A stretch of 58,158 nucleotides of DNA from a virus. The DNA lies in IMG/VR virus record IMGVR_UViG_3300011116_000399, positions 1-58,158 of that record; one strand, given 5' to 3'. Made by a program: the position numbers and the translations under genes. Positions 35,155 through 57,124 of this stretch are shown one piece after another (positions within the stretch are counted from its first letter, which is position 1; each line of letters begins with the position of its first letter). Below the pieces are notes generated by a model. It worked only from the letters and a program-made list of their open reading frames with translations, was not told the DNA's origin and did no database searches.

Positions 35155-35174
35155 AGTATATCATAACTGGGGTT
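35155..35174 (-). promoter_or_regulatory. promoter with AACCCCAGTT element
   Basis: On the minus strand AACCCCAGTT (35174-35165), ATGA, then TATACT (35160-35155), with AGAGAGGAG before the gene ending at 34915. The element lies within the 3' end of the upstream gene (35161-35274), which encodes QPQL there. Confidence 0.8.
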
Positions 35175-35274
35175 GGTTATTCACCTTTTCAACAATGATT
35201 TCCTTGATTTTGTCCAAGTCTTCCTTGGATACCTCAACGCCTAAAACCGCGACTTTATCGAGCCAGTTACTCAT
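35161..35274 (-). CDS. hypothetical short early protein
   Basis: 37 residues (SNWLDKVAVLGVEVSKEDLD, KIKEIIVEKVNNQPQL), RBS AAGGAGG. A coiled short helix protein. Its last codons coincide with the next promoter element. Confidence 0.65.
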   Translation of the reverse strand: MSNWLDKVAVLGVEVSKEDLDKIKEIIVEKVNNQPQL

Positions 35275-35791: not shown

Positions 35792-35811
35792 AGTATAACA
35801 CAACGGGGGTT
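35792..35811 (-). promoter_or_regulatory. promoter with AACCCCCGTT element
   Basis: Minus strand: AACCCCCGTT (35811-35802), GTGT, TATACT (35797-35792), then GAGAGGAGG before the gene at 35766. Same layout as 35155 and 40264. Confidence 0.8.
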
Positions 35812-35879
35812 AAAAATCATCCCCAAATAGGGCTAAATTTGTACTAAATTTTGTACGCACAATGTACGCACAAATTCTT

Positions 35880-36664: not shown

Positions 36665-36797
36665 TTGTTACCGAGTAATTCCCGTTCCTAATCCAACTTA
36701 CTTTGAGTCTCGAGTAATCTGCGTTTGCGGATTACAGCGCTTCGAGAACCGTAGTGACAACAGCGCTAATAACAATCAAGACAAAACTTCCAAGTAA
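36621..36797 (+). CDS. possible small zinc-binding protein (overlapping)
   Basis: 58 residues in another frame over the end of the 36458 gene. NENHSADCYRVIPVPNPTYF, then RVICVCGLQRFENRS, contains H..DC and CxCG. Overlaps the 3' end of the minus-strand gene at 36732. No clear RBS; moderate to low support. Confidence 0.45.
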   Translation: MTPNDIWKNENHSADCYRVIPVPNPTYFESRVICVCGLQRFENRSDNSANNNQDKTSK

Positions 36798-36923
36798 AGC
36801 AATACCCCACAGGTATCGCAATTCAGGAAACTTTGCTGGCTCCCTTTTTTGTTTAATGACTTGTTGAATAATCTTTGGTTGTACTAAGTCATCAAACTTC
36901 TTATTAACCTCTTGTTCGTTCAT
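36732..36923 (-). CDS. small membrane protein
   Basis: 63 residues. N-terminal helical part (NEQEVNKKFDDLVQPKIIQQ) and a C-terminal membrane segment (WGIALLGSFVLIVISAVVTT). RBS GGAGAGGAAC. Unknown. Confidence 0.7.
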   Translation of the reverse strand: MNEQEVNKKFDDLVQPKIIQQVIKQKREPAKFPELRYLWGIALLGSFVLIVISAVVTTVLEAL

Positions 36924-37221: not shown

Positions 37222-37785
37222 CTACTTTTTAGTTTTAGTTGCAACCTTCTGTCGTTTTTGTTGAGTATGAAAAATAAAAGGTGGAGATGTGTAGGCATCA
37301 TTCTCTGATGCAATCTTCAACGCTTCTCGCATAGTTGCGCCAGCGCTGAGTGCGCCGATTGCTATATCAGAACCCGAACCTACTCCGTAGTAACCTTTGC
37401 CATCCATTGACACGGAGAAGTCATCTGCAATTTCAAATATCTCTCCACCAATTAGAATCAGAAAACCAAAGCGACTCTCATCATCATCATAATCCCATTT
37501 ATATTCGTTTTCTTTGAAACAAACCTTGAGAGATGGAACTACTTTAGAAATCATGAAGTGATAAAGATTGTTCCAGTCCTTGCCAGTTGGCATCGGCGGA
37601 TTCCAAATATGTTGGGCAATATCGCAAGGCGCACATTCACCAGCGCCAGCAATAATAAAATCGCCACGCTGATTTATTTTTACCATCTGAGAGTGAATTG
37701 CTTTACGACCCGTGCTTCCAGTTGTTTGTGAGTCCGCACCAATTACTGCCTTGTCATCGTATTGAACAGCAATAATTGTTGTCAT
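37222..37785 (-). CDS. HslV/proteasome-beta-like Ntn peptidase
   Basis: 187 residues. Start MTTIIAVQYDDKAVIGADSQ places Thr2/Thr3 at the N-terminus after Met removal. GADSQTT and QMVKINQRGDFIIAGAG correspond to Asp17 and Lys33 of HslV. YYGVGSGSDIAIGALSAGAT, then REALKIASENDAYTSPP, matches the helix after the active site. HslV and proteasome subunits degrade proteins as rings with ATPases. No ATPase is encoded here, so it may form a homo-oligomer, interact with host proteasome/Mpa, or act as a decoy. The charged C-terminus QKRQKVATKTKK is an addition. Confidence 0.8.
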   Translation of the reverse strand: MTTIIAVQYDDKAVIGADSQTTGSTGRKAIHSQMVKINQRGDFIIAGAGECAPCDIAQHIWNPPMPTGKDWNNLYHFMISKVVPSLKVCFKENEYKWDYDDDESRFGFLILIGGEIFEIADDFSVSMDGKGYYGVGSGSDIAIGALSAGATMREALKIASENDAYTSPPFIFHTQQKRQKVATKTKK

Positions 37786-37829: not shown

Positions 37830-38753
37830 CTAGGGTTTTACAACCTCGGTAGGCACAGCCATGAGTCCGAGCGCAACCGTCGCCCATAGGTCAGGGGTTT
37901 CCGTATCGGGCTGGTATCCACCCGCTCCACCTAGAAGGATTGGATGCTCGGGGAACTGCTCTCTAATCAGGCGCATAGCCTTGAAATAGCCATCCTTGGT
38001 GTATTGCAAGGATGAGAGTGGGTCATTGGCTAGACCATCGGCTCCACACGCTACGAAAATCATCGTAGGCTGGAACTCGTTGCAAGCCTCGAGGAATCCC
38101 TCAGTAGCAGATAACAATTCTGCATCGCCTGACTTTGATGCAAGCGGGAAGTTATAGGCAAGATGTTTCCAATCGCTAATCAATCCCGTGCCTGGAAAAA
38201 TCCCATACTCATGAACTGAGTAAGTTAGAACATTTTTGTTCTTCTTTAACAGCATTTCAGTACCGTCACCATGGTGAGCATCGCAATCAAAGATAGCGAC
38301 CCTATGGTCATAATCTTGAGTTGCTCTAGTTGCGGCAATAGCAAAATCATTGAACACACAAAAACCGCTTGAGTAGTCACGCATTGCGTGATGCTTTGCA
38401 CCAGCAAAGTGAACAGCCAATTTAGTTTTGTAATCAATCAAAGCATCGAGAGCAGTCAAAGTACCGCCAGCAAACAACTTGGCTAAATCACCTAGGTCGT
38501 GGCGTTGTCCCATCCATTCACTTGATTCACCTCGGACAGTTACATCGAAAACATACTCCATGTCATGAACTAGATGCAGGTCATCAGTAGATGGCATCTC
38601 AGGTTCAATCTCCCAAACATTTAATCTACGGTCTTGCGCTCGCAACATAAGTTGATTACGAGCATGGAGAAACCTCCGCCCCTGAGTTGGGTGCGTCTTG
38701 TCAAAAACCCAATTCGCATACTCAGGCGAATGAACTAATACTGCATGTTCCAT
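37830..38753 (-). CDS. histone-deacetylase/AcuC-family deacetylase
   Basis: 307 residues from the second Met (38753); the upstream ATG overlaps the -10/RBS (TATTATGAGAGGAG). Motifs: AGAKHHAMRDYSSGFCVFND (catalytic His pair), IFDCDAHHGDGTEMLL (zinc ligands D-x-H), ACGADGLANDPLSSL (third ligand), LLGGAGGY. This is the class I HDAC/AcuC/acetylpolyamine amidohydrolase fold. Phage copies are unusual. Possible substrates: acetylated host proteins, acetylpolyamines or an acetylated base. Expressed from an early-type promoter. Confidence 0.9.
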   Translation of the reverse strand: MEHAVLVHSPEYANWVFDKTHPTQGRRFLHARNQLMLRAQDRRLNVWEIEPEMPSTDDLHLVHDMEYVFDVTVRGESSEWMGQRHDLGDLAKLFAGGTLTALDALIDYKTKLAVHFAGAKHHAMRDYSSGFCVFNDFAIAATRATQDYDHRVAIFDCDAHHGDGTEMLLKKNKNVLTYSVHEYGIFPGTGLISDWKHLAYNFPLASKSGDAELLSATEGFLEACNEFQPTMIFVACGADGLANDPLSSLQYTKDGYFKAMRLIREQFPEHPILLGGAGGYQPDTETPDLWATVALGLMAVPTEVVKP

Positions 38754-38766
38754 AGTTTCTCCTCTC

Positions 38767-38784
38767 ATAATATAAACCCCAGTT
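38767..38784 (-). promoter_or_regulatory. promoter with AACTGGGGTT element
   Basis: Minus strand AACTGGGGTT (38784-38775) directly followed by TATATTAT (38774-38767) and GAGAGGAG, driving the deacetylase gene. The element is in the reverse orientation relative to 35155. Confidence 0.75.
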
Positions 38785-38802
38785 TACCTTATTTATTGAT
38801 TA

Positions 38803-38830
38803 TTGACAAAACTTAATAAACCCATAAAAT
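38803..38830 (+). promoter_or_regulatory. sigma70-like promoter of a candidate small RNA
   Basis: TTGACA (38803-38808), 16 bases, TAAAAT (38825-38830): the best canonical promoter in the genome. No gene follows before a terminator 25 bases downstream. Confidence 0.65.
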
Positions 38831-40263: not shown

Positions 40264-40283
40264 AGTATATCATAACTAGGGTT
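40264..40283 (-). promoter_or_regulatory. promoter with AACCCTAGTT element
   Basis: Minus strand AACCCTAGTT (40283-40274), ATGA, TATACT (40269-40264), TTAGAGAGGAG. Layout identical to 35155. Confidence 0.8.
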
Positions 40284-40285
40284 AG

Positions 40286-42195: not shown

Positions 42196-42310
42196 TCAAA
42201 ATAGCGTAGCCAACAATTCCTTTTGCAACACCATCAAGAACAATCCAAGCAACAAACATTCCTAAGAGTGTCCAAAGTTGTCCTATGATGTCATTAAAAA
42301 ATGCTTTCAA
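42143..42310 (-). CDS. small membrane protein, TTG start
   Basis: 55 residues from TTG 42310, overlapping the stop of the lectin gene (TTGA, the same coupling as at 39059). Two hydrophobic stretches: [19 protein letters not shown] and [18 protein letters not shown]. Overlaps the 3' end of 41899. Perhaps a membrane partner of the lectin stalk. Confidence 0.65.
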
Positions 42311-44508
42311 GGTTTTCTCCTATATCCGACGCTTCCAATGGAAGCAGTCACTATTGCGTTGCTGGCGATATTGCCAACAATCGTTGCGGCAACAATCGTC
42401 TTAGTTGCCTCATCTCTTTCTTCTTCTGACATATCTGCTCCGAGATTTCCAAGAGCAAAAATAAGTTGAGCAGGACTCTCAAATATCGCTTGCAGAATTT
42501 CTGCTGGAGATTCAAGAAGTTGAAGAGCATCAGCAACAACGGCAGTAATTATGACAGCATTGCCATTTTCATCTTCTCTGACCTCAACAGGTGTAGCAGG
42601 TGGAAGGTCGGCTAAAGTAATTCCTGCTTCAGCAATAGCCTCAACAGTTACCGCTTCTCCTGCAAAAGATTCAATCAAAGCCTCGGCTACAAGTTCTTTT
42701 TCTGATTCTGTAAAGGTTCCATCCTCACTTAATTGTTCGGAAAGATTATTGACTTCATCTTGAGTAATTTCTCCATCCGCCGATAGTGCGTCGATTATCT
42801 CTTCGGCATCAGCGGGTGTAATATCGCCACCATCTAAAATGTCGGAGAGTATTTCTTCAACAATCTCGGAGGTGTCTAATGATTCAGAAGGTTGTTCTGT
42901 CGGCTCTAATTCTTCTTGGGGCGTGGCTTCTTCTTCATTTGATTCAGAAGTAGGTTCATCTAATGGTGGTTGTTCAGGTGTTTGATTTGTCGGGTCAGAT
43001 TCCTCTTGGTTTTCGGAAGGTTCATCCTGAGGTTCTTCGGAAGGCTGAGGAGTTGGCTCAGGCTCGGGGGTCGGTTGAGGTTCAGGGGTCGGTTCGGGTG
43101 TCACTTCAGGACTTGGACTTGGCTGAGGTTCAGGGGACGGAGTGGGAGTGGGTTGAGGCTGTGGGTCGGGAGTCGGCGTTACCGAAGGGGTATCGATTGG
43201 ACTCGGAGCAGGGCTTGGTACAGGATTTGGTTCAGGTGACTGAGATGGAATTGGGGTAGGCGATGGCGAAGGTGTGGGTTCAGTTGTGGACGGCGAAGGT
43301 TGCGGGGTCGGTTCAGGTTGAGGAGTCGGAGTTACGACAGGTTCAGGGCTTGGAGTCGGCGAAGGCGTTGGTTCCGATGTTGGTTGAGATTCGGGAGAAG
43401 GAGTGGGAGATGTTGCCGACGGTGTTGGTGAAGGAGTCACCGTTGGTTCAGGTGTCGGACTTGGAGAAGGCTGAGGAGTTGCTTGAGGTGTTGGAGCCGT
43501 GGCGGGATTAGCGTCGCCATATTCAAGAATTACTTCTAAGCGTTTAACAATTCCACCACAAGGGTCACCAAAGATTTGATTGATTGCTTGAATGACAGCA
43601 TTGTTTTTTCCAAGAAAAATTTCGGAAACTTTTGCTACTGAGTTAGCCGCATGGCATTGAGCATTGATTACATAATTTTCAGGAAGTCCATAACTAGCAA
43701 AAATTACATTTGTAAAAATCTTTCCGATTGGTGCAATTAAATTTAAGGAGCCACCTTCACCTACCGTACCATTTACCTGATTAGAAGGAGTAGTCGATGG
43801 AGTGGTTGTTGCTGTTGGGCTTTCTGATGGGATGGGTTGTGGGCTTGATTCAGGGGTCGGCTCAGGAGAAGAGGTTGGCTCAGGAGTTAAAGTGGGCGAA
43901 GGCGAAGGCTCGGGTGTTGGAGTTGGACTTGGCTCGCTGGTCGGAGAAGAACTCGAAGTGGGCGAAGGAGATGGTTGAACAGTTGAAGTCTCGGACGGAG
44001 ATGGAGAAGTCGTTGCAGTCGGAGTATCAGATGTCGGAGTCGGCGAAGGCTCAGGCGTTATCGAAGGGGTGGGCGTGGGTGTTGGGGCAGGAGAACTCAC
44101 CGAGACAGTAAAGATTGGTCCGTACCATCCAGCCCAAAATCCATTATCGATACCCGAAACATTGATAACAGTTTGACCCGAGGAAACAACACTTACAGAA
44201 GTTGCTTCGATTGAATTACCGCTAAAACTTTGACCGTTGATTGAAACGCTCCAACTATCAGCAATAGGAGTACAACTACCAATACAGTTGGCGATGGTGT
44301 TATTGATTGAGACGGTGACAGTTGAACCGTCGGCGACATTGATTCGATTATTAGCGCTACCGCCTCGATAGTCGAATTGGATTGAGTCGCCCGAGATATT
44401 GCCATTTACCACCTGTTGCCAAGTACCGTCGGCGCTTGCCGAGTCGGTAGGCAAAATCGTCCACCAAAAGGCGAGGCTACAAATTAGGAAAATACGCCAA
44501 ATACGCAG
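42307..44508 (-). CDS. secreted, membrane-anchored SUEL-lectin-like stalk protein, CTG start
   Basis: 733 residues if started at CTG 44508; a TTG at 44454 would remove the signal peptide. In favour of CTG: TAGGAG seven bases upstream and the resulting leader [18 protein letters not shown] followed by [10 protein letters not shown], a clear signal peptide with an A-x-A site. Then a beta domain (to about 140), a Pro/Thr/Ser linker, and a SUEL/galactose-lectin-like domain (about 245-335; [38 protein letters not shown]). A second linker of PTPEPSP type (about 340-510) and acidic DGxIT repeats ([20 protein letters not shown]) follow. The C-terminal hydrophobic stretch ([18 protein letters not shown]) with YRRKP anchors it. 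Role: perhaps altering the host surface or blocking superinfection. Confidence 0.75.
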
Positions 44509-50949: not shown

Positions 50950-51957
50950 ATGCCGTTTCGTTTTGCGAAAGCCGAAAGACCTAGGCGCATACCTTTAACA
51001 CCTCAAGAGCAAGCCTTGGCTCGCACACTTTTTGAATCTATTCAGCGAGCCACAGATAGCATCTCTCTTCGACAGTTAGAGAGTTTGCTTCGTAATCTTG
51101 ACCCACAAACTTTAGAAAGATTGTTGAATTCAATAACAATCGCTAATCAAAAAAAGATTCAAGATTCTTTATTATCCTCGATTGATATTGGTGGTAATGA
51201 AGCAATCAAACAGATTAGAGAGATTGCACCTAAGTTAGCCCTACCTGCATTTATACCAACCAAGGTAAAGATAGAAAACCGTCCAGCAATGGCTAACATG
51301 GAGTTCACAAAACTTCCTGCGTGGGCACAATCTAAACAACCTAAAGTTGAATTCAAAATGTCATTCAATAAAACAAACCCAAACTCTTTAGCCTTTGCTC
51401 AACGCCGTGCTGGTGAACTTATTACATCTATTGACACATTAACCCGTGAATCAATTCGTCGAACAATTATTGACGCTTTTAATGAGCAGATAGATTACCG
51501 AGCCGCCGCTAGAAGAATTAAAAATGTTGTTGGGTTGCATCCACGATGGGCTGATGCAGTTACTAAATTTGAAAAAGATGAGTTTGCTAGATTACTTAAA
51601 CGAGGATTAAAAGAAGAAGTTGCTCGGGCTAAGGCTATGGATAGAGCCACTAGATATTCAGATTCTCTAAAGAGTAAAAGAGCAACGATGATTGCTAGAA
51701 CCGAAATTCAGATTGCTCAAAACGAGGGACGCTACGAAGGATGGAAGCAAGCGGCTGAAGAAGGTTATGTTGATGTTGAGTCACAGAAAATGTGGATTAT
51801 TGCTCAAGATGAACGCACCTGTGAAATTTGTACAGAATTAGATGGAGAAGTTGTTGGTTGGAATGAACCATTTTCTAGCGGTGATGAAACTCCAGGCAGG
51901 GTGCATCCTAATTGTCGTTGCACCATGGTAATCATTCCACCTGAGAGACGCTCATGA
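50950..51957 (+). CDS. MuF-like minor head protein
   Basis: 335 residues, starting 2 bases after portal. Helical N-domain; then RRTIIDAFNEQIDYRAAARR, ATMIARTEIQIAQNEGRYEG and WIIAQDERTCEICTELDGEV, VHPNCRCTMVII. The C-terminal zinc-like CEIC...HPNCRC is the MuF/SPP1 gp7 signature. These proteins attach to the portal, are often injected with DNA, and are typical carriers of polymorphic toxin domains. Confidence 0.9.
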   Translation: MPFRFAKAERPRRIPLTPQEQALARTLFESIQRATDSISLRQLESLLRNLDPQTLERLLNSITIANQKKIQDSLLSSIDIGGNEAIKQIREIAPKLALPAFIPTKVKIENRPAMANMEFTKLPAWAQSKQPKVEFKMSFNKTNPNSLAFAQRRAGELITSIDTLTRESIRRTIIDAFNEQIDYRAAARRIKNVVGLHPRWADAVTKFEKDEFARLLKRGLKEEVARAKAMDRATRYSDSLKSKRATMIARTEIQIAQNEGRYEGWKQAAEEGYVDVESQKMWIIAQDERTCEICTELDGEVVGWNEPFSSGDETPGRVHPNCRCTMVIIPPERRS

Positions 51958-53258
51958 GTATTACTCTCACATTCCCTGCTGGCTATAAGCCAGTTCTTAA
52001 GCACGGTGAACACGACCAAAGTTCTCATGGTAGTTGGGCGCACGGAAATTCTTCATTGCAAAAAGAGTATGCGGGATTGAGGGAAAGCGGAATTATAGAA
52101 AATGGAAAATACTACCCTGAGTACGATTCCGTAGCGACATCAGGCTTTGACCCCTCTAAATACTCAAGACCTTATGACCCAAGGGCGCTGACTAATGACG
52201 CCAAGGTTCATTCAGGTCCTCAGTTACGAGAAATAATTCAACAACTTATGGATAGGGAAGAATATACCCCTGAAATACAAAAAAAAGTTGAGGAAATTTC
52301 TAAAAGTTTTTTAACAGCCAATTTAGAAAATGTACAAACTTATTTTGAACAAGAAGCGGCAAAACAGAATTTAGGCGCAACAAATTCTAAGATTTATGTA
52401 GCGGGTCAGACTCAAAGATTATCTAACTACCTTGATGCTAATAATGCAGAAGTTAGATATGAAATTGCAAAAGCCATCTATCCCCTCCTTGGCGAATTAC
52501 GAGGTATGCAATTAGGTAATTATTTACAAAATCACGAAAGAGTAACAAAGGAAATTCAAGAGAATGTTTCCAAGGGATTTCCCGTCATAGCCGTTGATTC
52601 AAGAGATTTTGAAAAAGTTTTAACAGATGGTAGATTTAAGTCACAATTTGAGTCAAATAAAAGTGGGGGAATGTACGATTTAGGCAGGAGAAAAATCGAA
52701 GAAGTAGAGCAAGGAATTCCAGTAAACAGTAAATTGAAGGATAGACCAATTTACGGATACCTTGCAAGCCAACTATCTGTTGATGAAAATTCTGCAAGAG
52801 ATGTAAATAACGAAAAACCTACCAATACATTTACCGTGAACACAAGCCGAGTAGAACAATATGGCGACTTAAGGGTATTATTAAATGATGATGTAAAAGA
52901 AAGAACCACTTATACTTTAAGAGATTCTTTACAACAAGGCTCACTTCCACAACCCTTGTCCGAGAAAGTGACTAGAGATAATCTTGTAACTGCGGGTTTA
53001 CATGCGAGAAGTTCCTATGGAAGCGGCGGTAAACATACAAGCGAGTATGTTGAAGTACAAATCAAAAATGGTGTAAAAGTTACAGATATTAAACAAATTT
53101 ATATTGTTAGTCGAAGTAGTGATTCACAAGACAGGGAGCGTCGAGTTAATGAGGTTAAAAGCATGTTGAGTGCTTCAGGTAATACAAATTTAATTGATAA
53201 AGTTAAATTTTTACCCGCAGAAAAAGATGGTTTGTCAGATTATGGGTGGTCAGATTAA
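51954..53258 (+). CDS. virion-associated protein with DUF3626-like C-domain
   Basis: 434 residues, ATGA overlap with MuF. Residues 16-31 are LKHGEHDQSSHGSWAH, the shared motif. Helical middle. C-terminal region (DRPIYGYLASQLSVDE, RVEQYGDLRVLLNDDVKERT, EYVEVQIKNGVKVTDI) resembles DUF3626-like domains found as toxins/effectors in MuF contexts. Perhaps delivered into the host with the DNA. Confidence 0.7.
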   Translation: MSITLTFPAGYKPVLKHGEHDQSSHGSWAHGNSSLQKEYAGLRESGIIENGKYYPEYDSVATSGFDPSKYSRPYDPRALTNDAKVHSGPQLREIIQQLMDREEYTPEIQKKVEEISKSFLTANLENVQTYFEQEAAKQNLGATNSKIYVAGQTQRLSNYLDANNAEVRYEIAKAIYPLLGELRGMQLGNYLQNHERVTKEIQENVSKGFPVIAVDSRDFEKVLTDGRFKSQFESNKSGGMYDLGRRKIEEVEQGIPVNSKLKDRPIYGYLASQLSVDENSARDVNNEKPTNTFTVNTSRVEQYGDLRVLLNDDVKERTTYTLRDSLQQGSLPQPLSEKVTRDNLVTAGLHARSSYGSGGKHTSEYVEVQIKNGVKVTDIKQIYIVSRSSDSQDRERRVNEVKSMLSASGNTNLIDKVKFLPAEKDGLSDYGWSD

Positions 53259-55280
53259 ATGGACAATACGCTCAATATAGAAAAAGGCACCGTTTTATAC
53301 AAACGCTCAGATGGTAGTGAGATTGTATTTACAAAAATGGATGATGAAGATTTCTACGGTTTTGTTCGTAATCCCAAAGGTAAAGTTTTTGAAGAACAAT
53401 TATTAGGGTCGATACTTCGTCGAGGTGATTGGGAAGCCACCTATGAACCTGTGAAAAAGCACGGTGACCACGACCAATCAACCCATGGTGCTTGGGCGCA
53501 TGGCGTTCAAGTAGCCCCTGAAAAGATTCGAGAGGCTATCCAGCAAGTCAAGGACAATGAAGGTCTGACCATCGATATGAAAGATGGGGATATGCCCAAA
53601 ACGGGCTTTACCGTGGCTAAGGGTAAGAAATTCGCCGAAATCGTCAAGGCTGAGGATTTCTATGGGGAAAAAGGCGAGGAGATTCTGACTTCCTACCTAA
53701 AACAATACAGGTCAGAACTTAATAAAGAGAATAACTACCTCGGTTTATGGCATAATAAGAAAGATGGACAGGTTTATCTTGATGTTTCTGAAAACATCCA
53801 AGATGAAACGGAGGCTATAAACCGTGGTCGTGACAGAGACCAAATCTCAATATGGGATGTAGTAAATCTAAAAGAAATACCAACAGGAGGTACAGGTGCC
53901 ACAAAAACTAGAAGTAGTCAAACTTCCCGATTTGTCAAAGATGACAGACGAGCAGATAGAAGCATACGCCAAGGAGATTTGGGCGAAGTTAGCAAAAGGC
54001 AAGAACGAGTCAAAGTAATTTATTTTGATTACGGATTAAAACCCGTATTCAAACATGAAGGTCACGAAGACCAGTCAAGCCACGGTAACTGGGCTAGAGG
54101 ATTTACTGAGCAAGAACAATCTCGTATTGAGTCTATGGACAAAGTTGGTCCATCAAAAGATGATTTAAGTAGATTACTAAAAGGCAAAAAAGAATATACC
54201 GACGAAGATAAAACTCTTGTCGTAGAAAATGATTCTGATTTATATGCCGATGCAACTCAAGATATTGATTCTAGGGTTGAGGAAAGACTTGCTCGACTTC
54301 AAGCAGAGTTTCCAAATCATGTTTATACAGAACAAGAAAAAGCAACTATCTATGAGGACACACAAAGAGACATGGTTGCTGAATATGTAGATTCCAATAG
54401 TGAGACATTAGACGAATATCTCCAAGCAAGCGAGGGAGATTCTTTTGACCCTCAAGAATCAATCGATTCATTCCAAGATGTTTACGGTGTAAGCCATACT
54501 GGAACAACTAGAGATGGAAGAGAAGTAACCCTAAGTGCGAATGTTGGCGATGTTAGCGCCGACGGTTACAACATTTATATTCGTGGAGATGTTATTAGTG
54601 ACGATGGAAATTTGGCTGGAGAGTTTGAGCGACGCATTTTTCAAAAAGACGGAGTTTGGAATGTTGAACACGCAGTCTTGAGGTTAGATGATGAATACCA
54701 AGGTACGGGTTTTGGTAAAGAGTTTATTGAGCAATCAGAGGCTTGGTATACCGCTAAAGGTTTTGGTTTCATCGAAGTTGGAACAGCATGGGACGGCGCT
54801 CGCCATTGGGCTAGAGCGGGGTATGACTGGAAGCCTGACAGAGTTTCAGAAAACTTAGATAACATTTCTCAAAGAGTTGCTTCTATGGTCGATGAGGATA
54901 GTGGCTGGTTCAAAGAGGGTTCTCCCGAAAGAATTGAGTTTGATAATTTAATGTCAAGAGCAACAAACGAATACAGCCCTTATTTTGAAGATGAAAGCGG
55001 ATATAAGTATCCCGCTTTTAGTTCAGTCAAAGATTTGAAAGCAGATGACTTCCCACTACCTGCTCATTTTGCAAACATTGGATATTCAAAAGAAAAAGCA
55101 GAAGAAGTTGGTACTTGGGCTGGTAAAGAATTGATGTATGACTTGAGAATGAAATACACGAAGTCATTAACCGCTGAGGGACAAAAACTCTTACAAGGTC
55201 CTATTGACCTTGACGGGGATGGATTGGTTTATGATGGAACAGCCCGTGAAAAGCCAGCACCAAGTAGCGCAAAGAACTAA
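53259..55280 (+). CDS. two-unit virion-associated protein with GNAT-like domain
   Basis: 673 residues. Two copies of the motif: about residue 66 (KKHGDHDQSTHGAWAHG) and about 265 (FKHEGHEDQSSHGNWARG). Between them lies a domain with YLGLWHNKKDGQVYLDVSEN, DQISIWDVVNLKEI, seen in other phage effectors. After the second: FERRIFQKDGVWNVEHAVLR, LDDEYQGTGFGKEFIEQSEA, RHWARAGYDW, a GNAT-like fold. Ends DLDGDGLVYDGTAREKP. Looks like two ancestral genes fused. Confidence 0.7.
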   Translation: MDNTLNIEKGTVLYKRSDGSEIVFTKMDDEDFYGFVRNPKGKVFEEQLLGSILRRGDWEATYEPVKKHGDHDQSTHGAWAHGVQVAPEKIREAIQQVKDNEGLTIDMKDGDMPKTGFTVAKGKKFAEIVKAEDFYGEKGEEILTSYLKQYRSELNKENNYLGLWHNKKDGQVYLDVSENIQDETEAINRGRDRDQISIWDVVNLKEIPTGGTGATKTRSSQTSRFVKDDRRADRSIRQGDLGEVSKRQERVKVIYFDYGLKPVFKHEGHEDQSSHGNWARGFTEQEQSRIESMDKVGPSKDDLSRLLKGKKEYTDEDKTLVVENDSDLYADATQDIDSRVEERLARLQAEFPNHVYTEQEKATIYEDTQRDMVAEYVDSNSETLDEYLQASEGDSFDPQESIDSFQDVYGVSHTGTTRDGREVTLSANVGDVSADGYNIYIRGDVISDDGNLAGEFERRIFQKDGVWNVEHAVLRLDDEYQGTGFGKEFIEQSEAWYTAKGFGFIEVGTAWDGARHWARAGYDWKPDRVSENLDNISQRVASMVDEDSGWFKEGSPERIEFDNLMSRATNEYSPYFEDESGYKYPAFSSVKDLKADDFPLPAHFANIGYSKEKAEEVGTWAGKELMYDLRMKYTKSLTAEGQKLLQGPIDLDGDGLVYDGTAREKPAPSSAKN

Positions 55281-55293
55281 ACTGGGGTATAAT
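55280..55293 (+). promoter_or_regulatory. promoter with AACTGGGGTA element, leaderless
   Basis: AACTGGGGTA (55280-55289) overlaps TATAAT (55288-55293), then 6 bases to ATG 55300. It combines both promoter classes. Confidence 0.65.
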
Positions 55294-55299
55294 TAGATT

Positions 55300-55461
55300 A
55301 TGAATAGACGAGAGACACAAAAGGCTATCCAAGAGGCTTATGCAAAATGGTCTGAGAAGGTGGAATTTACCTCTGAGACTGGAGCATCCGATAAAGACGA
55401 GTCTGAGATTATGGCTCAGATTTCAACCATACTTCAAGGAAATAAACCGCAGTCAGAATAG
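55300..55461 (+). CDS. small helical protein
   Basis: 53 residues, leaderless. TQKAIQEAYAKWSEKVEFTS, then ESEIMAQISTILQGNKPQSE. Unknown; between two virion-effector genes, with its own promoter. Confidence 0.65.
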   Translation: MNRRETQKAIQEAYAKWSEKVEFTSETGASDKDESEIMAQISTILQGNKPQSE

Positions 55462-55468
55462 TGTGCGC

Positions 55469-55480
55469 TATTCTTAGAAC
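55469..55480 (+). promoter_or_regulatory. leaderless promoter (-10 TATTCT)
   Basis: TATTCT (55469-55474), 6 bases, ATG 55481. Confidence 0.55.
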
Positions 55481-57124
55481 ATGGCGGATATAGCACCGAA
55501 ACTTATTCATCTAAGCGCTGAGAAACTCAATGCGCTACATGAGCGTGTCCATAAGTCTGAGGCTACCCCTGCAACTATCGAGGTTCACCACACCATCCTC
55601 AATGAGATGGCTAGGCGCAAGATGGAACGCCCCCAAGATGATTGGGATAAGTACGAGATTTTAATTGATTCAATCGATAATGTAGACCTGACAAGTATTG
55701 GTGGATTATCAGCCGATACAGTTCTTGATGTTATTAAATCCACGGGCGACATCGTTGGAAATATAAAAACCTTTTTGACTATCCATGGCTATCAAATGCG
55801 TATTGAGCCAGTTGAAAAACGGATTCAACAAGAGGGTAGTAAATGGGTTGTTTACAACGAAGAGGGAACTCAGAAATTTGGAAGTTATGAAACAAAAGAA
55901 GAGGCTGAAGACCGTTTGCGCCAAATGCACATGTTCAAAGCCGATGATACTTACACGCCACCAAAGTCTGTAAGACAAGCGGCTCAAAGAGCAATCGAGT
56001 GGATTGGTGAAGGTTTTGCAGGTCAAGGATTTACTTCAACTGGTCGAGTTCGAGCAGGTCAATTAGCCCGAGGCGAAGCAGTATCTATTCAAACTCTAAA
56101 GCGTATGAAGTCTTTCTTCTCACGCCATGAAGTTGATAAAAAAGCAAAAGGTTTTAATCGTGGCGAAGAAGGTTTTCCTAGTGGTGGTCGAGTTGCATGG
56201 GACGCTTGGGGTGGCGATGCAGGATTCGCTTGGGCTGAAGCAATGGTTTCAAGATACGAAAATCAACAAGGGGTAAAAAAACATGAAGGACACGAAGACC
56301 AATCCGTCCACGGAAGTTGGGCTACTGGAGTTGGTAGTGGAAAAGATGAGAGTTCAAATGGTCGTCCCGCTTTATCACCTGACAAAAAGCCAAGTGCAGA
56401 ACGAAGCCCTGACGCAGTTAAGCAAGCCGAGAGATTACGAAGAGATGCTGAGGCAGTTGAGCCAGTAATTACAGGCTTGATGGAAGGTATTGCTAAAAAT
56501 ATCAATGCGGATTTCGCTGAGGTAGATGGCAAAAGTTCTTTAACGGAAAGACTTAAATCTACTGATTCTCTTGCTCGCAAGATTGATGCAGATGCAGAAA
56601 AAGACCATGGTGGCGATAGGGAGAAAGCGGCTAACGCAATTTCTGATGCAGTTCGCTATACATTAAATGTTGATGAATCTGATTACACAGACGGTGTAGA
56701 AAAAACTCTTGACACATTAAAAGAAACTGGTTGGAAAGTTGAATCAGTTAAAAACTTTTGGCAAGCAGGTGACCCTTATGATGGCACCAACATTAAGTTA
56801 AGCAAAGAAGGCGTCAAAGTAGAACTTCAATTACATACTCCAACATCTCATAAAATTAAAGAAGTTGGATTACATGATGATTACGAAAAATATCGTGTAT
56901 CAAAAGATGACAATGAACGCAGAAATCTTTGGGACAAAATGACCGAAACTGCTAAATCCATTCCACGCCCTGCCAATATGGGCAAACTTTTAAGTATTGG
57001 CACTCTAGTTGTGCAAACTTTTGAGACTGCTCAACAGGCTGGCTTGGTAAAATCAACTGGGGTTGATATAATATGGAGAATAACGAGAGAGGGTGTAGCC
57101 GTATGCGGTATTTTGCAAAACTAG
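55481..57124 (+). CDS. virion-associated protein with RelA/SpoT-like domain
   Basis: 547 residues. N-part with HKSEATPATIEVHHTILNEM. Then SVRQAAQRAIEWIGEGFAGQ and GFNRGEEGFPSGGRVAWDAW, a common DNA-binding-like domain beside phage proteases. At about residue 265 the shared motif KKHEGHEDQSVHGSWATG. C-terminal domain about 330-480: LTERLKSTDSLARKIDADAE, ISDAVRYTLNVDESDY, VKNFWQAGDPYDG, VKVELQLHTPTSHKIKE. This is the RelA/SpoT nucleotidyltransferase layout (RxKSxxSxxxK, DxxRY, ELQxHT), like toxSAS effectors. It could make an alarmone or modify tRNA in the host. Confidence 0.75.
   Translation: MADIAPKLIHLSAEKLNALHERVHKSEATPATIEVHHTILNEMARRKMERPQDDWDKYEILIDSIDNVDLTSIGGLSADTVLDVIKSTGDIVGNIKTFLTIHGYQMRIEPVEKRIQQEGSKWVVYNEEGTQKFGSYETKEEAEDRLRQMHMFKADDTYTPPKSVRQAAQRAIEWIGEGFAGQGFTSTGRVRAGQLARGEAVSIQTLKRMKSFFSRHEVDKKAKGFNRGEEGFPSGGRVAWDAWGGDAGFAWAEAMVSRYENQQGVKKHEGHEDQSVHGSWATGVGSGKDESSNGRPALSPDKKPSAERSPDAVKQAERLRRDAEAVEPVITGLMEGIAKNINADFAEVDGKSSLTERLKSTDSLARKIDADAEKDHGGDREKAANAISDAVRYTLNVDESDYTDGVEKTLDTLKETGWKVESVKNFWQAGDPYDGTNIKLSKEGVKVELQLHTPTSHKIKEVGLHDDYEKYRVSKDDNERRNLWDKMTETAKSIPRPANMGKLLSIGTLVVQTFETAQQAGLVKSTGVDIIWRITREGVAVCGILQN
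57055..57072 (+). promoter_or_regulatory. promoter with AACTGGGGTT element
   Basis: AACTGGGGTT (57055-57064), GA, TATAAT (57067-57072), then CGAGAGAGG before 57103. It lies inside the end of the 55481 gene. Confidence 0.75.

What the first reader, a model, noticed from the sequence alone, without database searches (positions are those of the whole stretch)
37830..38753. Phage-encoded histone-deacetylase-family enzyme
All zinc-ligand and catalytic motifs of the HDAC/AcuC/acetylpolyamine amidohydrolase fold are present in an early-type gene. Such enzymes are rare in phages. It may remove acetyl groups from host proteins, act on acetylpolyamines used in DNA packing, or process an acetylated base.
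Basis: partly seen in the sequence, partly recalled or inferred. Interest (0 to 1): 0.7.

Follow-up and report, generated by a model that had tools for sequence, protein, structure and literature searches.

The report
Phage HDAC-type deacetylase with proteasome-like partner
A phage of freshwater actinobacteria carries a well-kept zinc enzyme of the histone-deacetylase family, next to a proteasome-like protease gene; its closest bacterial relatives sit in probable anti-virus gene clusters, so it probably edits protein modifications during infection.

Summary
A 307-residue HDAC-superfamily protein is encoded on the MINUS strand at 38753-37830 (Pfam Hist_deacetyl 1e-57). Zinc ligands, His dyad and catalytic Tyr are invariant in 78 close phage relatives; dN/dS is about 0.1; the AlphaFold model (pLDDT 93) matches solved deacetylases at Z about 37. 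It is no recent host fragment: it forms a 100/100-supported phage clade.

Beyond the finding: (1) an HslV/proteasome-beta-like peptidase gene lies just downstream in 71 of 74 testable relatives. In a second, divergent phage lineage (HDACs 33-41% identical) the pair recurs in another gene order (40 of 45), with a dual-specificity-phosphatase gene directly before the HDAC (49 of 54). (2) The nearest cellular kin are not AcuC but patchily present genes of freshwater actinobacteria. In 10 of 13 genomes they adjoin vWA, phosphatase, TY-chaperone, Nudix/NrtR or ADP-ribosylglycohydrolase genes, the set described for a predicted conflict system that erases virus-laid ADP-ribosylation.

Best reading: an active zinc lysine deacylase, shared with a bacterial modification-erasing conflict module and used by the phage on host or phage proteins. 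Catalysis is well supported; protein substrate and conflict role are inferred. Acetylpolyamine hydrolysis remains a weaker rival.

The parts
37830..38753 (-). HDAC-superfamily zinc amidohydrolase CDS, 307 aa
   Evidence: Pfam PF00850 1e-57; 80 viral relatives; AF2 model pLDDT 93.1, PDB Z about 37
38759..38765 (-). Shine-Dalgarno-like AGAGGAG before ATG 38753
   Evidence: read directly
38280..38282 (-). codon of zinc ligand D158 (DCDAHHG motif; H160 at 38276-38274)
   Evidence: translation, DNA; conservation
38388..38393 (-). codons of the catalytic His dyad H121-H122 (KHHA)
38037..38039 (-). codon of zinc ligand D239 (CGADG; gatekeeper-position Leu is L246)
37914..37916 (-). codon of catalytic Tyr Y280 (GGAGGY)
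37222..37785 (-). HslV/proteasome-beta-like Ntn peptidase (187 aa), conserved partner gene 44 bp downstream of the HDAC
   Evidence: PHROG_1040 'peptidase HslV family' 4.6e-30; T2, D18, K36, S137 invariant in 39 relatives; AF2 pLDDT 90.5, best PDB matches BPH and HslV; next to the HDAC in 71 of 74 relatives
36732..36923 (-). small predicted membrane protein (63 aa), same block, conserved in 66 of 80 relatives; role unknown
38781..38809 (-). sigma-70-like promoter match TTGTCA-17-TAAACT upstream of the HDAC (not above chance)

Best explanation
The gene encodes an active zinc-dependent deacylase of the HDAC superfamily. It belongs to a clade shared by two groups of actinophages and by chromosomal operons of freshwater actinobacteria, and apart from AcuC. 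It most likely removes acetyl or other acyl groups from lysines of proteins by the standard HDAC mechanism: zinc (D158, H160, D239) polarises the amide, the H121/H122 dyad activates water, Y280 stabilises the intermediate. In bacteria the enzyme is one arm of a predicted modification-erasing conflict module (with ADP-ribosylglycohydrolase, DSP phosphatase, vWA/TY chaperones, Nudix regulator). The phages carry it as part of their own protein-editing set, next to an HslV/proteasome-like peptidase and, in the second lineage, a DSP phosphatase, and use it to reset modifications on host or phage proteins during infection. Shown by computation: family, intact active site, fold, selection, gene linkage, phylogeny. 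Inferred: catalysis itself, protein (not small-molecule) substrate, joint action with the peptidase, role in phage-host conflict.
For: Family and active site. Fold: 53, 58, 63. Purifying selection: 65. Closest solved sequences by profile are protein deacetylases (HDAC6, class I HDACs, lysine deacylase 5zmp, Kdac1). Gatekeeper position is Leu, as in the second HDAC6 domain aligned, not the Glu of HDAC10. HslV-like partner: lineage 1 71/74, lineage 2 40/45 in another order; in L021 the HDAC is close to the window's (82%) but the HslV is of the other type (36% to the window's, 59% to lineage 2), so the partner was exchanged while the pairing was kept. DSP directly upstream in 49/54 lineage-2 loci, Pfam DSPc above cut-off. 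Bacterial kin: vWA-DSP-TYChap3-HDAC, NrtR-vWA-HDAC-DSP-TYChap3, NrtR / ARG-DSP fusion / HDAC; 0 of 76 AcuC control loci have the vWA, DSP, TYChap3 or Nudix seeds. Defence-type neighbours (GmrSD, NERD-helicase) nearby. Tree: phage lineage 1 with one bacterial group at 100/99, lineage 2 with the other at 98/93, AcuC apart at 100/100; one clade of all phage proteins rejected, AU p 4e-55. Literature: ARG-centred system PMC9503650; MGE acetyltransferase against host deacetylase, AcrVA5 and CobB, PMC9114340.
Against: No activity data. Substrate class cannot be read from the fold: PDB matches to lysine deacetylases and to acetylpolyamine amidohydrolase are tied in Z. HslV-like genes are common in phages without any HDAC, so their link may be only that both belong to one early gene block. 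The isolate relatives Magritte and E3 have neither HslV nor DSP beside the HDAC. The window carries no ARG, and no phage record tested does. The predicted conflict role of the bacterial operons is itself untested. The L2-loop Asp (D86) that aligns with the backbone-binding Asp of HDACs is kept in lineage 1 but displaced in lineage 2.
Confidence: 0.55

Rival explanations
1. Acetylpolyamine amidohydrolase: the phage frees spermidine or putrescine from their N-acetyl forms for DNA packing or translation.
For: Structure equally close to msAPAH 6phr (Z 37.1). An AdoMet-decarboxylase gene lies between the HDAC and HslV in L008, L010, L015 and just after HslV in L021, L022. Giant viruses use APAH for this purpose (PMC9992855).
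Against: Window and most relatives have no AdoMetDC (8 of 44 contigs); that slot also holds a GP88 gene or nothing. Gatekeeper is Leu, not the HDAC10 Glu. Protein deacetylases lead the sequence-profile list and no APAH is among the 60 rows shown. Bacterial kin lie in modification-eraser operons, not polyamine operons.
Confidence: 0.17
2. ADP-ribose-linked small-molecule deacylase: the enzyme deacetylates O-acetyl-ADP-ribose or a related ADPr adduct in a pathway with ARG, DSP phosphatase and the ADPr-sensing Nudix/NrtR regulator.
For: Direct adjacency to ARG-DSP fusions and Nudix regulators in bacterial kin; related NrtR proteins sense ADPr (PMC9503650).
Against: HDACs are amidases; deacetylation of OAADPr is known from other folds (ARH3, cited in PMC9503650). 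In several bacterial kin ARG is absent from the genome (8 of 10), and no ARG was found in the phages.
Confidence: 0.12
3. AcuC-like metabolic enzyme: it reactivates acetylated acetyl-CoA synthetase or similar ligases to feed phage metabolism, as proposed for phage sirtuins.
For: AcuC sequences are the nearest large bacterial family outside the clade; phage Sir2/CobB proteins have been proposed to activate ACS (PMC5107563).
Against: AcuC is separated by a branch of 1.83 changes per column, 100/100. No synthetase or acetyltransferase family was found among the ten phage neighbours scanned.
Confidence: 0.1
4. Passenger or decayed host gene without function in the phage.
For: Similar genes exist in freshwater actinobacterial chromosomes.
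Against: dN/dS about 0.1, invariant active site in 78 relatives, phage clade 100/100, fixed locus.
Confidence: 0.02

Closest known systems
HDAC superfamily, Pfam PF00850 Hist_deacetyl
   Same: Fold, zinc ligands, His dyad, catalytic Tyr
   Different: Short 307-aa form with a compact L2 loop and the clade signature HPT...R and EW; a clade of its own
AcuC (Bacillus, actinobacteria)
   Same: Nearest widespread bacterial relatives, about 30-34% identity
   Different: Clearly separate clade; different gene neighbourhood
Acetylpolyamine amidohydrolases, incl. those of Imitervirales (PMC9992855)
   Same: Same fold and chemistry; virus-encoded
   Different: That study identified APAH only in giant viruses of eukaryotes; here the gatekeeper is Leu and the context is not polyamine-related in most members
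ARG-centred predicted anti-ADP-ribosylation conflict system (Iyer et al. 2022, PMC9503650)
   Same: Bacterial kin share its Nudix/NrtR regulator, vWA, TY-Chap3, DSP (rhodanese-phosphatase superfamily) and, in three genomes, an ARG-DSP fusion
   Different: An HDAC is present beside or instead of ARG; the paper's main text never mentions HDAC; the phages carry only HDAC, or DSP plus HDAC, without ARG or a regulator
Rhodococcus phage E3 gp202 and Microbacterium phage Magritte gp204
   Same: Actinophage HDAC homologues; E3 gp202 annotated 'putative histone deacetylase protein'
   Different: 32-38% identity; neither has HslV or DSP beside it
Phage HslV-family peptidases (PHROG_1040)
   Same: The partner gene belongs here
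   Different: A fixed link to an HDAC gene was not found described in the papers searched

Membership tests
HDAC superfamily (PF00850) | Zinc ligands Asp-x-His and distal Asp | tested here: met
   D158, H160, D239 invariant in 78 relatives; in two lineages H160 is N in L144 only
HDAC superfamily (PF00850) | Tandem catalytic His and transition-state Tyr | tested here: met
   H121, H122, Y280 invariant
HDAC superfamily (PF00850) | Arginase-deacetylase fold over the whole length | tested here: met
   AF2 pLDDT 93.1; 290 residues aligned at 2.0 A to 5ji5, Z 37.7
HDAC superfamily (PF00850) | Zinc-dependent deacylase activity | not testable with these tools
   needs a purified-protein assay
AcuC | Phylogenetic placement inside AcuC | tested here: not met
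   AcuC set and phage/conflict-operon set are two sides of a 100/100 branch
AcuC | Deacetylates acetyl-CoA synthetase | not testable with these tools
   needs an assay
HDAC10-type polyamine deacetylase | Glu gatekeeper after the distal zinc-ligand Asp | tested here: not met
   Leu at that position in every sequence where the motif pattern was found: 20 of 21 lineage-1, 16 of 19 lineage-2 and 9 of 9 bacterial rows; alignment to HDAC6 domains. The role of this Glu is from established knowledge
Bacterial/viral APAH | Long L2-loop insertion making the dimeric, narrow active site | tested here: inconclusive
   L2 region is short in all 39 aligned proteins, but no direct alignment to an APAH sequence was made; 6phr aligns with Z 37.1, tied with lysine deacetylases
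ARG-centred conflict system | ADP-ribosylglycohydrolase in the operon | tested here: not met
   None in the window or 17 related phage records; met in three bacterial kin L337, L338, L339
ARG-centred conflict system | DSP (rhodanese-superfamily) phosphatase coupled to it | tested here: not met
   Window lineage 0 of 80; met in lineage 2 (49 of 54) and four bacterial kin
HslV/proteasome-beta family (partner gene) | N-terminal Thr nucleophile with Asp17, Lys33 and Ser129 equivalents, Ntn fold | tested here: met
   T2, D18, K36, S137 invariant; AF2 model matches BPH and HslV, E 1e-11 to 1e-9

The most novel reading that the evidence does not exclude
HDAC-type deacylases are the acyl-erasing arm of an undescribed variant of bacterial modification-erasing conflict systems (HDAC with ARG, DSP phosphatase, vWA/TY chaperones and Nudix sensor). 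Two groups of actinophages separately acquired the enzyme and turned it, with a proteasome-like peptidase, against host modification of proteins; in this phage it may even pair with a virion-associated acetyltransferase-like domain as writer and eraser.
Probability: 0.33. Interest if true: 0.82.

Novelty: new variant of a known kind. Interest (0 to 1): 0.62.

Why it matters
If right, it adds lysine deacylation to the chemistry traded between phages and bacteria, next to ADP-ribosylation, and points to an unrecognised enzyme in predicted bacterial conflict operons. It also explains a gene that is widespread in freshwater viromes but matches no PHROG family, and gives a concrete pair (deacetylase plus proteasome-like peptidase) for testing whether phages remodel the acylated proteome of very abundant lake bacteria.

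Tried and rejected
AcuC membership: rejected by the tree. Zinc-ligand loss in relatives: not seen in lineage 1; one distant protein (L144) has H160N. Recent host fragment: rejected. Using structure comparison to choose between lysine and polyamine substrates: uninformative, Z values tied. PADLOC: no model matches the HDAC, HslV-like, vWA, DSP or RecB-like proteins; only neighbouring GmrSD/NERD-type genes match. PHROGs and NCBIfam: no match for the HDAC. Papers: no report of this phage HDAC clade among those held; many subscription papers are not held. Staphylococcal 'phage' hits were left aside as probable AcuC-type host genes; the UPMK_1 and SA records are partial, unannotated or lack a gene call at the match. 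One conserved promoter for the block: promoter-like sites not above chance; a motif TAACCCYAGTTNNNNTATAMT occurs 4 times against 0.6 expected, but not in front of the HDAC.

Full report
OBSERVATION. The stated interval holds an open frame on the minus strand: ATG at 38753, stop ending at 37830, 307 aa, preceded by AGAGGAG. The plus strand of the interval is full of stops. Pfam gives Hist_deacetyl at 1e-57; PHROGs and NCBIfam give nothing. The motifs KHHA, DCDAHHGDG, CGADG and GGAGGY carry the His dyad (H121/H122), the zinc ligands (D158, H160, D239) and the catalytic Tyr (Y280). All are invariant in 78 full-length relatives from IMG/VR at 63-99% identity. Between the window and relatives dN is 0.08-0.31 and dN/dS 0.08-0.14 where dS is not saturated. 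AlphaFold2 gives a confident HDAC fold (pLDDT 93.1), matched over about 290 residues at 2.0-2.2 A (Z about 37) to bacterial and eukaryotic deacetylases, with acetylpolyamine amidohydrolase in the tie.

THE PHAGE. The record is a 58 kb virus contig. Its terminase is nearest (51-53%) to those of roughly 60 kb Arthrobacter phages, and it has a sub-threshold WhiB-like gene, so an actinobacterial host is likely. Many relatives are contigs of 55-62 kb.

THE PARTNER GENE. 44 bp downstream on the same strand is a 187-aa protein of the phage HslV family (PHROG_1040, 4.6e-30). Thr2, Asp18, Lys36 and Ser137, the equivalents of the proteasome catalytic set, are invariant in 39 relatives, and its AF2 model (pLDDT 90.5) matches BPH and HslV. 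It follows the HDAC gene within 2 kb in 71 of 74 loci with enough sequence. A second, divergent phage lineage was found with Microbacterium phage Magritte gp204 as query; its HDACs are 33-41% identical to the window's. There the HslV-like gene lies upstream instead (40 of 45 loci) and a dual-specificity phosphatase gene lies directly before the HDAC (49 of 54; Pfam DSPc above cut-off). In L021 and L022 a lineage-1 HDAC (82% to the window) stands beside an HslV of the lineage-2 type (L021: 36% to the window's HslV, 59% to that of L148), so the partner has been exchanged while the pairing was kept. Against a strict link, 24 of the 80 closest HslV relatives lack an HDAC; whole-contig searches of 21 of those contigs found none.

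THE VARIABLE SLOT. Between HDAC and HslV some lineage-1 phages carry a GP88 gene (gap of 738-739 bp in 14 loci; Pfam on L003) or an AdoMet decarboxylase (L008, L010, L015); in L021 and L022 an AdoMet decarboxylase follows HslV. This is the only polyamine hint. The window itself has none.

BACTERIAL KIN. A scan of 84,980 bacterial and archaeal genomes with the two-lineage alignment found three freshwater actinobacterial genes at 47-53% identity, then AcuC-type proteins at about 30-34%. Genome searches found close kin in 9 of 201 genomes of one actinobacterial order and 5 of 199 of a second actinobacterial family, a patchy, accessory distribution. Neighbourhoods: RecB-like, vWA, DSP, TY-Chap3, ORF, HDAC (L231); vWA, DSP, HDAC (L327) and vWA, HDAC (L325, L328, L320); vWA, NrtR, T5orf172, HDAC (L230); NrtR, vWA, ORF, HDAC, DSP, TY-Chap3, HD (L235); vWA, NrtR, ARG-DSP fusion, HDAC, ORF, DSP (L337), NrtR, ORF, ARG-DSP, HDAC (L338), ARG-DSP, HDAC (L339). 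I count at least one of vWA, DSP, TY-Chap3, NrtR or ARG adjoining the HDAC in 10 of 13 bacterial genomes (an after-the-fact count). Seeds for the first four hit none of 76 AcuC control loci; ARG was not tested there. GmrSD, NERD-helicase and other defence-type genes lie nearby. In 8 of 10 of these genomes no ARG was found, so the HDAC may stand in its place.

PHYLOGENY. With AcuC as outgroup the phage and operon-borne HDACs form one clade (100/100, branch 1.83). Inside it, lineage-1 phages (100/100) join the first bacterial group (100/99), and lineage 2 plus Magritte joins the second (98/93). Holding all phage sequences together is rejected (AU p 4e-55). So each phage lineage shares its enzyme with a different actinobacterial group, and transfer between phages and bacteria happened at least twice; the direction is not settled. 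The first tree, which still held very long branches, agrees.

MECHANISM. Shown: family, active site, fold, selection, linkage, relationship. Inferred: it hydrolyses acyl-lysine. The gatekeeper position is Leu, as in the second HDAC6 domain aligned, not the Glu of the polyamine deacetylase HDAC10 (established knowledge). Sequence profiles rank protein deacetylases first. The context is protein-editing: peptidase, phosphatase, peptide-binding chaperones. Iyer et al. 2022 (PMC9503650) predicted that operons of ARG, rhodanese-type phosphatase, vWA/TY chaperones and Nudix/WYL regulators reverse virus-laid ADP-ribosylation. The bacterial kin here have the same make-up plus, or in place of ARG, an HDAC, which suggests reversal of acylation. 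Acetylation is a known weapon: AcrVA5 acetylates Cas12a and host CobB restores it (PMC9114340). Why a phage would carry the eraser is open: to undo host acylation of phage or hijacked host proteins, to undo its own writer late in infection, or to feed proteins to its HslV-like particle. A possible writer exists: a GNAT-like stretch in the 673-aa protein encoded beside the portal and MuF genes (53259-55280), weak in the window (3.5e-4, below cut-off) but above cut-off in the orthologous protein of a relative.

KNOWN AND NEW. Phage HDAC homologues have been annotated before (Rhodococcus phage E3 gp202). The virosphere polyamine survey identified APAH only in giant viruses (PMC9992855). Phage sirtuins are known (PMC5107563). 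I found no paper among those held on this clade, its HslV pairing, or HDACs in ARG-type operons. The enzyme is therefore a new variant of a known kind; the context is the interesting part.

LIMITS. MAG contigs can be misbinned, though several bacterial loci have plain chromosomal neighbours (purA-like gene in L235, SbcCD-like genes in L326; both read by eye). Phage counts are not independent samples. No biochemical evidence exists.

Noticed in passing
window 53259-55280 (+), residues encoded by 54594-54821: GNAT acetyltransferase-like stretch inside a large protein gene beside portal and MuF genes (E 3.5e-4, below cut-off; the orthologous protein in G006/L340 passes the Pfam cut-off). A possible virion-associated writer opposite the HDAC.
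   Followed up: partly
window 51954-57124 (+): Three large proteins after MuF share a repeated motif like KHGDHDQSxHGxWAxG, and a segment of 55481-57124 looks RelA/SpoT-like by eye (VELQLHTPTSHKIKE); possible capsid-internal or polyvalent proteins.
   Followed up: no
L008, L010, L015 (between HDAC and HslV); L021, L022 (after HslV): AdoMet-decarboxylase genes of two divergent types placed near the phage HDAC; freshwater phage relatives of this family have been reported to act as arginine or ornithine decarboxylases (PMC9992855).
   Followed up: partly
L337, L338, L339: Bacterial ARG-DSP fusion genes directly before HDAC genes, with Nudix regulators: an apparently undescribed version of the ARG-centred conflict system.
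   Followed up: partly
L144 4989-5954: A distant lineage-2 phage HDAC has Asn in place of the zinc-ligand His (DWDVNAGDG), possibly a catalytically altered or inactive form.
   Followed up: no
window 35155-35175, 35792-35812, 40264-40284 (-): Repeated intergenic motif TAACCCYAGTTNNNNTATAMT (4 matches against 0.6 expected), perhaps a phage-specific promoter of the leftward block.
   Followed up: no
window 42307-44454 (-): Large protein with extremely long Pro/Ser/Thr-rich repeats and a weak SUEL-lectin match, possibly a surface or host-binding protein.
   Followed up: no
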